DNA from: Candidatus Altarchaeota archaeon
GTDB taxonomy: Archaea; Altiarchaeota; Altiarchaeia; IMC4; QMZM01
DNA: 8,629 nt
Assembly (NCBI GenBank): GCA_016931955.1
Contig: JAFGDV010000001.1
Location: forward strand, 1-8,629
Reading direction: 5' to 3'
Shown: positions 1 through 6,028 of the stretch, piece after piece
Layout: the number at the start of each line of letters is the position of its first letter
How positions within the stretch are numbered: position 1 is the stretch's first letter
Position numbers and translations under genes: made by a program
Notes under the pieces: model-generated
Databases searched by the model: none
What the model saw: the letters and a program-made list of their open reading frames with translations, nothing else
Told to the model about the DNA's origin: nothing

Positions 1-183
1 CAGCCTCCTCAGCAGCAGCCTCCTCAGCAGCAGCCTCCTCAGCAGCAGCCTCCTCAGCAGCAGCCTCCTCAGCAGCAGCCTCCTCAGTCTCAGCAGCAGC
101 CTCCTCAGTCTCAGCAGCAGCCTCCTCAGCAGCAGCCTCCTCAGCCTCAGCAGCAGCCTCCTCAGCAGCAGCCTCCTCAGCCT
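1..183 (+). repeat. 15-base tandem repeat coding QPPQQ units
   Basis: The unit CAGCCTCCTCAGCAG is present five times perfectly at 1-75. It then continues with variants in which the last codon becomes TCT or CCT and an extra CAGCAG is inserted (units at 76-90, 97-111, 118-132, 133-147, 154-168 and 169-183). The whole array is in frame with the downstream ATPase and reads as Gln and Pro with occasional Ser. Every Gln codon is CAG and every Pro codon CCT, so the DNA itself, not only the protein, is repeated; this points to recent expansion by slippage or unequal recombination. The array runs off the left edge, so its full length is unknown. Confidence 0.95.
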
Positions 184-2463
184 TCTCAGACTCCTGAACC
201 AAAGCAATCAGCGATGGATATGCTGAAGCCTGGGGAATTAGATCAACTGCAGGAGATACTGCAGCAGCCAGAACAATTACTGGAGCAGATACTGGAGCAG
301 AAGATAGAGGGGATACTGTCACAAAGGATTGCAGCGCAAACCGCACCTCCCACACCAGTGACTCCAGCTCCGGCGCCTATAGCAGTCGCTCCACCTCAGC
401 CTGCGCCTCTTGTAGAGGAAAAACTGCCAGAGAAGAAAATACTTGCAAAGAAGCCTCCTAGGGTGAAACCGCCTGAGAAGGAGGGTGACATAGATTCAAT
501 GCTGCCGTTGATACCTGTTAAGGGAAGCATAACATCAAATAAGGTGATGTTGACACTGGGATTAAGGAAGAAAACAGCCAACAAGTGGATTAAGGAACTC
601 CGTAAGCAAGGCATGCTCCGTTTAAAAAAGGATTATATATTCTTCGGAACATCAAGGCTGTTCGCTACAAAGTGGCTGCTAAAGCGAAGAGAGGAGGAGA
701 GACTAAAAAAAGAGATACTGGAGAAGAAGAAAATCTTCAAGGTAGTATTAACGCCAGTGGACAGTCTCTTAAATATAGTGAGAAGGGAAAAGCAGATGTC
801 GGTGTCTGATCTATCCAGGATTCTTGGATTGGATAAGGGGGTGATAGAAAAGTGGGCCAGCAAGATGGGGGATCTGGTATTATTGGAGTATCCAGCGAAC
901 ATACTCAAGAGCCCAGTGGTCAGGATAAAGAAGGAGCATCCGGATTTGGAAGCCCCCGAAGAAATGGCGACCGAGTCCATGGAATCATACCAGATAATCG
1001 CAGACAAGGTTCCTGCGATGGTTAAAATATACCGCTCAAGCGAGGAATCAATGCCTCACTATATGATCGATTTGCCTTATATCGGGGAAGGAACCTCAGC
1101 GATCCTTGATTCAATCCGAGATAAATTAACTGACAGGGTCCAGGTCCATGCAGAGGATATATCAGACCCAAAGAAGATGAGAGAGCTGAAGGATAGATTC
1201 TTCAAAGAAACCAAGAACCTCCTCTTGGAGGAGTTAACCACCTCAGAGGAGAACATGGATATAATCACAGGCATCATACTCCACAAGGCATATGGTCTAG
1301 GCAACATAGAACTACTCATGCAGGATGACTGGTTGGAGGAAGTTTGTGTTAACACCAGCCACATCCCACTCACGGCTTATCATAAAAAATACGGCTGGAT
1401 GAAAACGAACCTACTGGTTGAAAACGAGAAGGCAGTATACAACTATTCCTCACAGATAGGTAGGAAGGTGGGGAGAAACATAACAAACCTGAATCCGATA
1501 ATGGATGCTCATCTACTGACGGGGGACAGGGTATGCGCTTCGTTATTCCCTATATCGTCTTTCGGTAACACCATAACCATAAGGAAATTCGCAAGAAGCC
1601 CGTGGACGATCACGAATTTTATATCACCCGACCACTACACGCTCTCTAAGGAGATCGCAGCGTTCTTGTGGCTTTGCTTCCAATACGAGCTCAACGTAAT
1701 AGTTGGGGGTGGCACAGCATCTGGGAAGACAAGCGTACTTAACTGTCTTTGTTCGCTGATACAGCCCACTCATAGAATAGTCAGCATAGAGGATACACGC
1801 GAGATAAACCTGCCAAGTTACCTCTACTGGAACTGGATTCCGCTCACCACGAGGGAGGTAAACCCGGAAGGGAAAGGCGAGGTCTCCATGCTTGACCTGA
1901 TTGTGACATCCCTCAGGATGAGACCGGATAGGATCATTGTGGGGGAAATAAGGAGAAGACGGGAAGCGGAGGTCTTATTCGAGGCAATGCACACCGGCCA
2001 TTCGGTCTACTCAACGATACACGCAGACACCGCCAGGAATCTGCAGAGGAGGCTTCTTGAGCCGCCTATAGAGCTTCCAAGCGCGGAAGTCGAGGCCCTC
2101 CAGCTTATAGTAATCCAGCACCGGGACAGGACGACAGGAACGAGGAAGACCTTCGAGATTGCCGAGATCGTTCCCGGATCTGAGAAGTCGGGCTTTGAGT
2201 TAAACTACTTGTTCAGGTGGAACTCCAGGACAAAGGAATTCATTAAGATAAATGAGAGCTCTCGCATATTTGATGACCTTATGTTGCATACTGGGTTGAA
2301 TAAGCCTGAGATCCAGGAAGACCTGAAGGAGAGGGAGATTGTCTTGCAGTGGATGTTGGACAATAATGTGACACACATAGAGGACGTGGGGAGCGTCATG
2401 GACATGTACTACAAAGACAGAGATGGTCTATTGAATGAGATCAGAAAAAAGATGGGAATGTGA
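1..2463 (+). CDS. Type IV filament / type II secretion ATPase (archaeal GspE/TadA-like), 5'-truncated by window edge
   Basis: Cytoplasmic hexameric ATPase expected to power assembly of a type IV pilus-like filament through the two membrane proteins encoded next. The core shows Walker A GGTASGKT (nt 1708-1731), an Asp box SIEDTRE (1783-1803), Walker B RIIVGEIR (1930-1953) and a His box GHSVYSTIHAD (1996-2028), in the order usual for this family. The ATPase N-terminal region begins near nt 985. The reading frame is open without a stop back to nt 1, so at least 820 residues are coded; the first in-window ATG (nt 214) has no ribosome binding site and sits after an in-frame Gln/Pro tract, so I take the true start to be upstream. 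Order: Q/P repeats (1-213), Gln/Leu-rich probable coiled coil (about 214-340), Pro-rich linker (to about 490), two winged-helix-like segments (about 493-650 and 754-930), then the ATPase. The family assignment is firm; the filament type (pilus, Tad/Epd-like or secretion) is inferred. Confidence 0.93.
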   Translation, partial: QPPQQQPPQQQPPQQQPPQQQPPQQQPPQSQQQPPQSQQQPPQQQPPQPQQQPPQQQPPQPSQTPEPKQSAMDMLKPGELDQLQEILQQPEQLLEQILEQKIEGILSQRIAAQTAPPTPVTPAPAPIAVAPPQPAPLVEEKLPEKKILAKKPPRVKPPEKEGDIDSMLPLIPVKGSITSNKVMLTLGLRKKTANKWIKELRKQGMLRLKKDYIFFGTSRLFATKWLLKRREEERLKKEILEKKKIFKVVLTPVDSLLNIVRREKQMSVSDLSRILGLDKGVIEKWASKMGDLVLLEYPANILKSPVVRIKKEHPDLEAPEEMATESMESYQIIADKVPAMVKIYRSSEESMPHYMIDLPYIGEGTSAILDSIRDKLTDRVQVHAEDISDPKKMRELKDRFFKETKNLLLEELTTSEENMDIITGIILHKAYGLGNIELLMQDDWLEEVCVNTSHIPLTAYHKKYGWMKTNLLVENEKAVYNYSSQIGRKVGRNITNLNPIMDAHLLTGDRVCASLFPISSFGNTITIRKFARSPWTITNFISPDHYTLSKEIAAFLWLCFQYELNVIVGGGTASGKTSVLNCLCSLIQPTHRIVSIEDTREINLPSYLYWNWIPLTTREVNPEGKGEVSMLDLIVTSLRMRPDRIIVGEIRRRREAEVLFEAMHTGHSVYSTIHADTARNLQRRLLEPPIELPSAEVEALQLIVIQHRDRTTGTRKTFEIAEIVPGSEKSGFELNYLFRWNSRTKEFIKINESSRIFDDLMLHTGLNKPEIQEDLKEREIVLQWMLDNNVTHIEDVGSVMDMYYKDRDGLLNEIRKKMGM

Positions 2464-4357: not shown

Positions 4358-5182
4358 CTAAGGGGTAGGCCTTATGTCGTAGTAGTCTAATGGCCCAACC
4401 GAGTCGCCATAGAGGAGGACTTCGCCTTCATGTGATTCGTCGGCAAGGACTAGTTTAGCAAAAAACGGCTGACTGTGACACTGCATTGACTCGGGGAAAC
4501 ATGTGGCTGAGGGATACCCGTAGAGGAGCCAGAAAAACACACCATCTTTTGAGTCAATGGGTAGGGATACCTCAGAGATTATATAAGAGGGGGACTTGGA
4601 GTAAGAAACGCCTCCATCGGAGATGACCCGCTCAAGGTATTCTCCGCAGAATTTGCCGTCGACTCCGAAGATGGAGTTTCCACAGTAGATGCCTCCGCCG
4701 TCGCCGACCACGCCCTCAAACAGAGGGAGAACGATGAACATGTGTCGGTCGCCGTAGATGCGATTGTATCTGCCGTCGTTGGTAGGGTCGATAAAAAGGG
4801 CGGAATCCCCATAGAATCTGTTGCCGTCCAAGACCATGTAGAGGAAAAACACATGCGAGTCATTGTTCATGACGTAGAGCCTGTCAAAGCCCGATAAGAC
4901 GATCATGGAGGCACCAGACCACTCTGATGAGGAAACGGTGCCGTCTATTTCAGGTGCGGAGGAAGCCCATCCACTCTGTAAGACGTCGCTGACTGGGGGG
5001 AAGGGTAAAGTGGTTGAGGTCGTTGTAGTAGGGCAGGTAGACGAAGACAGGGTTTTAGGATATGGTTCGATGAGGTCTGTGATCTTTCTCTCAGGGGACT
5101 GTGGTCTGATGAATGAGGCCTCTTTCCTCTGCACGCAGCCACATAACAATACTAGGATAAACACGACGATGAGTCTTTTCAT
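4358..5182 (-). CDS. Predicted surface lipoprotein with CBM9-like domain
   Basis: Predicted to be exported and lipid-anchored: MKRLIVVFILVLLCGC is a short positive N-terminus, a hydrophobic core and a lipobox ending at Cys16 (Cys at -2 is less usual). A TTG at 5188 is in frame but would only add MG before the MKR start, so I use the ATG at 5182 (274 residues). A Ser/Thr-rich stalk with STCPTTTTSTTLP follows (about 47-60), typical of a cell-wall spacer that may be O-glycosylated. The rest contains PEIDGTVSSSEW near residue 75, the opening motif of CBM9-like/DOMON-type beta-sandwich domains, then alternating hydrophobic strands and an FIDPTNDGRYN loop. Such domains often bind carbohydrate, but no ligand can be named. 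The C-terminus ends at DYYDIRPTP with no second membrane anchor. It is convergent with the filament operon and divergent from the next lipoprotein. Confidence 0.8.
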   Translation of the reverse strand: MKRLIVVFILVLLCGCVQRKEASFIRPQSPERKITDLIEPYPKTLSSSTCPTTTTSTTLPFPPVSDVLQSGWASSAPEIDGTVSSSEWSGASMIVLSGFDRLYVMNNDSHVFFLYMVLDGNRFYGDSALFIDPTNDGRYNRIYGDRHMFIVLPLFEGVVGDGGGIYCGNSIFGVDGKFCGEYLERVISDGGVSYSKSPSYIISEVSLPIDSKDGVFFWLLYGYPSATCFPESMQCHSQPFFAKLVLADESHEGEVLLYGDSVGPLDYYDIRPTP

Positions 5183-5260
5183 TCCCAACCACTATATATT
5201 ACCGGGGAATTGATGCATAAATAACGCCGCATTTATTCGCTCTAGCATAAATAAGCTAAC
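5183..5260. promoter_or_regulatory. Divergent intergenic region between two lipoprotein genes
   Basis: This 78-base AT-rich stretch must hold the start signals for both flanking genes. On the + strand, ATTTATTC (about 5231-5238) lies some 27 bases before ATG 5261, the right distance for a TATA box of a leaderless transcript; no ribosome binding site precedes that ATG. GCATAAATAA occurs twice as a direct repeat (5215-5224 and 5245-5254), 30 bases apart. TATATATT at 5194-5201 is the most TATA-like word, but it is too near ATG 5182 for the leftward gene; on the + strand it would put a start near 5222. These are visual matches only. Confidence 0.45.
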
Positions 5261-6028
5261 ATGAGGGTGCGGGTAATGTTGATGCTTGCATTGCTCTTGG
5301 TCGGATGCATGCAGTCGGACAAAGAACTCTACGATGAAGCGGTACATAAGGAAGATCCTGAGCTCTGTGGGGTTGTGGGAAACGACAGCTTAAGGGATTC
5401 TTGTTACTCAGAACTGGCATTTGATCTCATGAACTCCTCCCTCTGCGGAAAAATAAGAAACCAGTCAGAGAAGGACGCATGTTATGGCAGAAGTGGTATA
5501 GAAGAGAACAACGTCTTACTCTGTGATAAAATCAGAGATCGGTGGGAAAGGGATCAATGCTGTTATAAGATAGCGATTAATAGAAAAGATTCAATGACAT
5601 GTGGCCTTATCCAAGATCAGGGGGTGAGAAACCAGTGTTATCTCGATGCGATAGTGAACCACTGGCGTTCGATGTTGTGTGATAAAATCAATGAAAGCGG
5701 GCTGAAGAGTGCATGTATTGCGGCGGCAAAGGACGACATAGCAGTCTGTTGGAGGGTGGAAAATCAAAGCGACCAGGACTACTGCTACGGGATTTTTGCA
5801 ATTGCAAGTTGGGATCCATTAGTCTGCGATAGGGTGCAGAATAGAACCCTTCAGGATTTCTGCTATCGCAATGTCGCGGAGAAGAGAGAGACGCCCCTCC
5901 TGTGTGAAAAAATTCAGGATGAAGACGAAAGAAACCACTGTCATGCGATAGTAGCAGTAGATCTGAGAAGATGCGACAGAATAAAGGATCAGGATAAGAG
6001 GGAACAATGCAGAAAAGAGCTTACTTGA
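5261..6028 (+). CDS. Predicted lipoprotein made of nine C-x11-C tandem repeats
   Basis: A 255-residue protein of unknown function. MRVRVMLMLALLLVGC is a lipoprotein signal with lipobox LVGC (Cys16), so it should be anchored on the outer face of the membrane. From residue 33 to the end it is nine tandem repeats of 26, 26, 26, 26, 23, 26, 26, 23 and 21 residues. Each has an invariant pair spaced C-x11-C (36/48, 62/74, 88/100, 114/126, 140/152, 163/175, 189/201, 215/227, 238/250), with pattern LC-x-x-I/V ... R/Q-D/N-x-C-Y and a following helical-looking segment. The regular pairing suggests one disulfide per repeat and a helical solenoid. Six N-x-S/T sequons are present. The repeats are diverged at DNA level, so the array is old. 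Similar Cys-repeat proteins occur in uncultured archaea as hypothetical proteins, to my recollection. It may be a binding scaffold, which is inference. It overlaps the convergent glyA by 8 bases. Confidence 0.85.
   Translation: MRVRVMLMLALLLVGCMQSDKELYDEAVHKEDPELCGVVGNDSLRDSCYSELAFDLMNSSLCGKIRNQSEKDACYGRSGIEENNVLLCDKIRDRWERDQCCYKIAINRKDSMTCGLIQDQGVRNQCYLDAIVNHWRSMLCDKINESGLKSACIAAAKDDIAVCWRVENQSDQDYCYGIFAIASWDPLVCDRVQNRTLQDFCYRNVAEKRETPLLCEKIQDEDERNHCHAIVAVDLRRCDRIKDQDKREQCRKELT
5357..6025 (+). repeat. Nine protein-level 23-26-residue Cys repeats
   Basis: Internal repeat domain of the lipoprotein. The Cys-Cys spacing is constant in all nine copies, while inter-repeat length is 26 in six copies and 23 in two (copies 5 and 8), with the last copy cut short after the second Cys. 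The 3-residue shortening, close to one helical turn, removes part of the segment after CY. Copy 3 has an extra Cys (101) directly after its second Cys. The consensus reads roughly LCDKIxNxxxRDxCYxxIA. Confidence 0.85.

What the first reader, a model, noticed from the sequence alone, without database searches (positions are those of the whole stretch)
5261..6028. Lipoprotein built from nine repeats with an invariant C-x11-C pair
All nine copies keep exactly 11 residues between the two Cys, while the linker between copies is 26 or 23 residues in period. There are 18 repeat Cys plus one extra (Cys101) and the lipobox Cys. This reads as a disulfide-stapled helical solenoid displayed on the cell surface. 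I do not recognise it as a named family; such a scaffold could be a binding or adhesion protein or a protein-contact surface in a host-associated or biofilm archaeon.
Basis: partly seen in the sequence, partly recalled or inferred. Interest (0 to 1): 0.78.

Follow-up and report, generated by a model that had tools for sequence, protein, structure and literature searches.

The report
Cysteine-paired helical repeat surface lipoprotein
This archaeal surface lipoprotein is a rod of nine small helical units, each marked by two cysteines exactly 12 residues apart, and it belongs to a large repeat family with no Pfam or NCBIfam entry that is common in the ultra-small DPANN archaea, occurs in some of the likewise ultra-small Patescibacteria, and was essentially absent from three comparison phyla.

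Summary
Confirmed: a 255-residue lipoprotein with nine C-x11-C units at spacing 26 or 23; the best of 20,000 shuffles gave seven. It is not an orphan. The same genome, an Altiarchaeota relative, holds about a dozen paralogs, and a syntenic ortholog in its genus keeps all 18 repeat cysteines but not Cys101. A genome-wide motif scan gave 38 stretches: 25 from DPANN/Altiarchaeota, 10 from Patescibacteria, 3 outliers, of which at least one looks misbinned. Profile searches gave 115/194 genomes in a Nanoarchaeota phylum and 24/286 in Patescibacteria, against 1/148, 1/295 and 0/115 in three comparison phyla. Pfam, NCBIfam and PDB sequences give no credible match. AlphaFold predicts a regular alpha-solenoid (pLDDT about 94). 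The helical-solenoid and surface readings are therefore well supported. The disulfides are likely but unproven: I could not measure S-S distances, VKOR does not co-occur with the family (P = 0.66), and this genome has no detected VKOR, DsbA-like or thioredoxin gene. Best explanation: an extracellular partner-binding scaffold, working like Helicobacter Hcp/Sel1-like solenoids but not a member by sequence.

The parts
5261..6028 (+). repeat lipoprotein gene (255 aa plus stop)
   Evidence: ORF; syntenic ortholog at 47% identity; AF2 model pLDDT 93.9
5261..5308 (+). signal peptide and lipobox ending at Cys16 (LLVGC)
   Evidence: sequence; lipobox also in ortholog L017 (LLSGC)
5348..5425 (+). unit 1 (C36/C48)
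5426..5503 (+). unit 2 (C62/C74)
5504..5581 (+). unit 3 (C88/C100, plus unconserved C101)
5582..5659 (+). unit 4 (C114/C126)
5660..5728 (+). unit 5 (C140/C152), followed by a 23-residue step
5729..5806 (+). unit 6 (C163/C175)
5807..5884 (+). unit 7 (C189/C201)
5885..5953 (+). unit 8 (C215/C227), followed by a 23-residue step
5954..6025 (+). unit 9 (C238/C250), C-terminal
4358..5188 (-). divergently oriented second lipoprotein, retained next to the repeat gene in the sister species (35% identity); functional link not shown

Best explanation
The protein is a lipid-anchored extracellular alpha-solenoid built from nine two-helix units: a 4-6-residue helix ending at or near Cys 1, and a roughly 11-15-residue helix carrying Cys 2 in its middle. 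The Cys pair of each unit most likely forms a disulfide that staples its hairpin, so that very short units (26 or 23 residues, against 34-38 in TPR or Sel1 repeats) hold a rigid rod outside the cell. The variable positions on the rod most likely bind specific proteins or glycans of the cell envelope or of partner cells, and lineage expansion into many paralogs with 3-15 units and varied extra domains diversifies that repertoire. Shown: units, anchoring signal, paralogs, distribution. Predicted: fold. Inferred: disulfides and binding function.
For: Nine-unit anatomy far beyond chance. AF2 pLDDT 93.9/pTM 0.80 for the window protein and 94.7/0.76 for a 14-unit bacterial relative, both regular alpha-solenoids. 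In a repeat scan scored with the Cys columns masked, over proteins pre-selected by the C-x11-C motif, 480 of 483 units had both Cys and only 1 had a single Cys. Only 14 of 192 array ends show an unpartnered extra Cys, so arrays run C1...C2, as within-unit pairing predicts. 86 of 90 family ORFs have an N-terminal lipobox or membrane/signal segment. Units are conserved position by position between orthologs (40.5% on the diagonal vs 19.7% off it), so each unit has its own conserved identity. About a dozen paralogs in this genome. Fusions with weak Lcl_C, C39-peptidase-like, MG2 and PKD matches.
Against: No ligand, binding site or experiment. No S-S distance measured. The own genome lacks recognisable VKOR, DsbA-like and thioredoxin families, and VKOR does not track the family in the Nanoarchaeota phylum. 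Neighbour genes give no functional hint: only the adjacent lipoprotein, SHMT, AMMECR1 and flavoprotein genes are shared with the ortholog locus, and the pilus-like genes are not.
Confidence: 0.55

Rival explanations
1. Same solenoid, but the Cys pairs are reduced thiols that bind metal ions or serve in thiol redox chemistry; the protein is a surface metal sink or redox buffer.
For: No VKOR, DsbA-like or thioredoxin gene found in this genome; no VKOR association; c5321, an SLR-fold protein, carries a metal site (PMC3851747).
Against: Only two Cys per unit; the unit consensus has no conserved His and no third or fourth conserved Cys; an extracytoplasmic location usually favours disulfides.
Confidence: 0.15
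2. A passive structural spacer or envelope rod that lifts other domains or reinforces the cell surface, with no specific ligand.
For: Unit number varies widely (3-15) and some relatives have near-identical units (L045, L021); fusions to other domains.
Against: In the window protein the units differ strongly from each other (mean 19.7% identity) yet are conserved one by one in the ortholog, more than a spacer needs; many members have no other recognised domain.
Confidence: 0.22
3. Divergent members of the Sel1-like/TPR superfamily (Hcp-like), not a separate family.
For: Alpha-solenoid fold; structural second look gives TPR/SLR-type chains at Z 6-11; Hcp proteins are secreted, disulfide-linked and paralog-expanded (PMC3851747, PMC3608669).
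Against: No Sel1 or TPR profile match even at loose E-values; unit 26/23 aa rather than 36-38; the structural Z values are what any helical repeat gives.
Confidence: 0.12

Closest known systems
Helicobacter cysteine-rich proteins (HcpA/B/C; Sel1-like repeats, PF08238)
   Same: Secreted alpha/alpha solenoid, repeat hairpins tethered by disulfides in Hcp, expanded rapidly evolving paralog family, thought to contact partner proteins (PMC3851747, PMC3608669)
   Different: Unit 36-38 aa vs 26/23 aa; no PF08238 match; different taxa; here the Cys pair is an invariant C-x11-C and its disulfide is not shown
TPR-type alpha-solenoids (e.g. OGT, LGN, consensus TPR)
   Same: General helical-repeat scaffold; best structural rows (1w3b Z 10.8, rmsd 15.7, 259 aligned)
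   Different: Unit 34 aa vs 26/23; no profile match; no Cys staple; such Z values are common for helical repeats
Ton1535 (PDB 3zpj), Thermococcus onnurineus
   Same: Archaeal alpha-helical repeat structure; best Foldseek row for the 14-unit relative (E 3e-4, probability 1.00)
   Different: TM-scores 0.21-0.33 only, VIA Z 6.6-6.8; no sequence match with any profile
Large cysteine-rich extracellular proteins of Peribacteria
   Same: Cys-rich predicted surface proteins in Patescibacteria, proposed to serve in attachment (PMC4736985)
   Different: Much larger (mean 1,655 aa), related weakly to Myxococcus Cys-rich repeats; no C-x11-C unit is reported for them

Membership tests
Sel1-like repeat / Hcp family | Match to the Sel1 profile PF08238 | tested here: not met
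   No such match among Pfam hits up to E 1 (window), 0.5 or 0.1 (relatives)
Sel1-like repeat / Hcp family | Unit of 36-38 residues | tested here: not met
   Unit spacing 26 (322 cases) or 23 (23 cases) across 71 ORFs
Sel1-like repeat / Hcp family | Super-helical alpha/alpha solenoid fold of SLR type | tested here: inconclusive
   AF2 alpha-solenoid; c5321 (4bwr) Z 6.2 among many helical repeats
Sel1-like repeat / Hcp family | Disulfides locking the hairpins | not testable with these tools
   No coordinates, no experiment; indirect support only
TPR family | 34-residue unit and a TPR profile match | tested here: not met
   Unit 26/23; no TPR family among Pfam hits
Undescribed C-x11-C solenoid family (defined here) | At least 3 tandem C-x11-C units with consensus D-x-S-[IL]-C-[DE]-K-I-x-D-x-x-x-[KR]-D-x-C-Y-x-x-[VI]-A and extracytoplasmic targeting | tested here: met

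The most novel reading that the evidence does not exclude
A previously unnamed extracellular repeat family shared by, and largely limited to, the two ultra-small radiations (DPANN archaea and Patescibacteria), moved between the domains and used as a diversifying recognition repertoire for contact with host or partner cells.
Probability: 0.3. Interest if true: 0.82.

Novelty: new variant of a known kind. Interest (0 to 1): 0.62.

Why it matters
[quoted passage not shown] A compact Cys-paired solenoid found in over half of sampled Nanoarchaeota-phylum genomes, expanded to a dozen or more copies in some, and present in bacteria of similar lifestyle, is a concrete and testable candidate class. Its 23-26-residue unit is also very short for an alpha-solenoid, of interest for protein design, and it raises the question of how such proteins are oxidised in genomes without recognisable Dsb/VKOR enzymes.

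Tried and rejected
Multi-sequence alignment as genome-contig query: no conserved stretch. Single-protein query: no confirmed relative. The degenerate C[ED]KI.D...[KR]D.CY pattern worked. Viral contigs, phages and plasmids: no match, so no sign of a mobile or viral origin. PHROGs matches were weak and inconsistent. Weak Pfam hits (Ribosomal_S21e and others) lie below cut-off and were rejected as chance. Cys co-loss could not separate within-unit from between-unit pairing because Cys losses are almost absent; the array-end test was used instead. VKOR and Thioredoxin_4 co-occurrence gave no association. Sel1-like/Hcp and TPR chains show up only as generic helical-repeat matches. Literature searches for a described C-x11-C family found none, within an open-access library only. 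The link to the neighbouring pilus-like ATPase/TadC genes was rejected because they are not kept at the ortholog locus.

Full report
Observation. The ORF at 5261-6028 (+) encodes 255 residues with a lipobox ending at Cys16. It contains exactly nine C-x11-C pairs (36/48 to 238/250), spaced 26 residues apart except for two 23-residue steps, and one further Cys101. Shuffling the mature sequence 20,000 times never gave more than seven such pairs.

Not an orphan. The genome holding the window (1.55 Mb, 92% complete) gives 22 matches to the protein, in about a dozen separate ORFs. Two of them, with 15 and 8 units, lie next to each other; most have a lipobox. In the other sampled species of the genus the gene sits in the same place between the same neighbours (second lipoprotein, SHMT, AMMECR1, flavoprotein). 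It is 47% identical, while the three cytoplasmic neighbours are 66-79% identical. All 18 repeat Cys and both 23-residue steps are kept; Cys101 is not. Each unit resembles its positional counterpart in the ortholog (40.5%) far more than other units on average (19.7%), so the units are individually maintained, not homogenised.

Organism. One genome of the same family carries a protein that also lies on contig QMZG01000022.1, named Candidatus Altiarchaeales archaeon, and one of the same order matches another contig so named. The window is therefore from an Altiarchaeota relative, as far as record titles can be trusted.

Distribution. A strict degenerate pattern for one canonical unit, scanned over 84,980 species genomes, gave 38 stretches: 25 in archaea named Altiarchaeota/Altiarchaeales, Pacearchaeota, Woesearchaeota, Nanoarchaeota, Micrarchaeota, Diapherotrites, Aenigmatarchaeota, Nanohaloarchaea, Fermentimicrarchaeum or Burarchaeum; 10 in Patescibacteria; and 3 others. 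The 'Mollicutes' outlier encodes a protein identical to one in a Paceibacterota genome and is probably misbinned. A four-unit profile (A4) at E <= 1e-6 hits 115 of 194 genomes in the phylum of a Pacearchaeota record and 24 of 286 in the phylum of the Liptonbacteria record. In the Helarchaeota phylum it hits 1 of 148, in the phylum of the 'Mollicutes' record 1 of 295, in each case only the genome chosen as the centre, and in one further archaeal phylum 0 of 115. The phyla were sampled, not exhausted, and many phyla were not sampled at all. The bacterial occurrence is real: the 14-unit Liptonbacteria gene lies among genes for bL25, RF1 and bL31. The archaeal occurrence is real too: 12 matches in a complete 1.18 Mb Fermentimicrarchaeum chromosome, and an archaeal-type MinD gene near a 15-unit Diapherotrites gene. 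Similarity between the Liptonbacteria protein and Diapherotrites proteins (50-59%) is as high as that to Parcubacteria (48-57%). This suggests inter-domain transfer, but consensus-driven repeats make that inference weak.

Family status. No Pfam, NCBIfam or PDB sequence family matches credibly. The unit consensus from 517 repeats is roughly K-Q-D-x-S-I-C-[DE]-K-I-x-D-x-x-x-[KR]-D-x-C-Y-x-x-[VI]-A. Of 90 distinct ORFs, 86 carry a lipobox or an N-terminal hydrophobic segment. Some members are fused to other domains, with weak matches to Lcl_C, C39-type peptidase, MG2 and PKD.

Structure. AlphaFold2 with 19 sequences gives mean pLDDT 93.9 and pTM 0.80. Each unit is a 4-6-residue helix ending at or near Cys 1 and a roughly 11-15-residue helix with Cys 2 in the middle. 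The 14-unit Liptonbacteria relative gives the same picture (pLDDT 94.7, pTM 0.76). Foldseek finds no PDB chain at E <= 1e-3 for the window model. For the relative, the best is Ton1535 (3zpj) at E 3e-4 but with TM-score only 0.21-0.23. VIA-align gives Z 9.5 to a designed repeat and up to 10.8 to a TPR domain, which the tool's own notes rate as common for helical repeats. So it is predicted to be an alpha-solenoid, without a demonstrated close relative of known structure.

Are the Cys disulfide-bonded? I could not measure distances because coordinates are not released by the tool. Indirect evidence: with Cys columns masked in scoring, 480 of 483 detected units have both Cys and only one has a single Cys (the proteins had been chosen by their C-x11-C motif, so this is partly circular). 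Only 14 of 192 array ends carry an extra, unpartnered Cys, so arrays start with Cys 1 and end with Cys 2. This favours within-unit pairs over pairs between neighbouring units. Against: this genome has no hit to VKOR, Thioredoxin_4 or thioredoxin PF00085, and VKOR occurs about equally in Nanoarchaeota-phylum genomes with (60/115) and without (38/79) the family. Disulfides remain the likeliest state for paired Cys outside the cell, but this is inference.

Function. The best-supported account is a lipid-anchored, rigid, modular scaffold that binds partners through its variable surface. It works like the Helicobacter Hcp proteins, which are secreted, disulfide-stabilised Sel1-like solenoids in an expanded paralog family (PMC3851747; PMC3608669). 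It is not a member of that family: the Sel1 profile match and the unit length were tested and not met. A passive spacer rod or a metal/thiol role are the main alternatives.

Novelty. No description of a C-x11-C repeat family was found in the searched open-access papers. The main text of the DPANN protein-family survey PMC8204110 does not mention cysteine, disulfide or repeats, and notes that many lineage-specific families lack functional annotation and are membrane-bound or extracellular. I rate it a new variant of a known kind (Cys-stapled alpha-solenoid surface protein), notable for its taxonomic pattern.

Noticed in passing
window 4358-5188 (-): Fast-evolving lipoprotein divergent to the repeat gene, kept in synteny in the sister species at 35% identity; no credible family match.
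   Followed up: partly
window 1-210: Q/P-rich low-complexity N-terminal stretch (QPPQQQ...) of the type II/IV-like secretion ATPase ORF that continues to 2463, followed by two TadC-like T2SSF genes: a pilus-type cluster.
   Followed up: no
L064 (JAAYPA010000072.1) and L049 (JAQVJR010000001.1): A 'Mollicutes' MAG carries a protein identical to that of a Paceibacterota genome, so it is probably misbinned.
   Followed up: partly
L009 5531-7830: Two adjacent repeat genes in the same genome (15 and 8 units), one a lipoprotein and one apparently membrane-anchored.
   Followed up: no
G000, whole genome: No detected thioredoxin (PF00085), Thioredoxin_4 or VKOR gene although the genome is 92% complete; 13 of 14 control genomes have PF00085.
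   Followed up: partly
L072 (Helarchaeota MAG) and G062: The only Asgard genome with the family, on two contigs; real transfer or contamination is unresolved.
   Followed up: no
L055 1732-3375 (-): Repeat units fused to a C39-peptidase-like domain in an unclassified bacterium.
   Followed up: no
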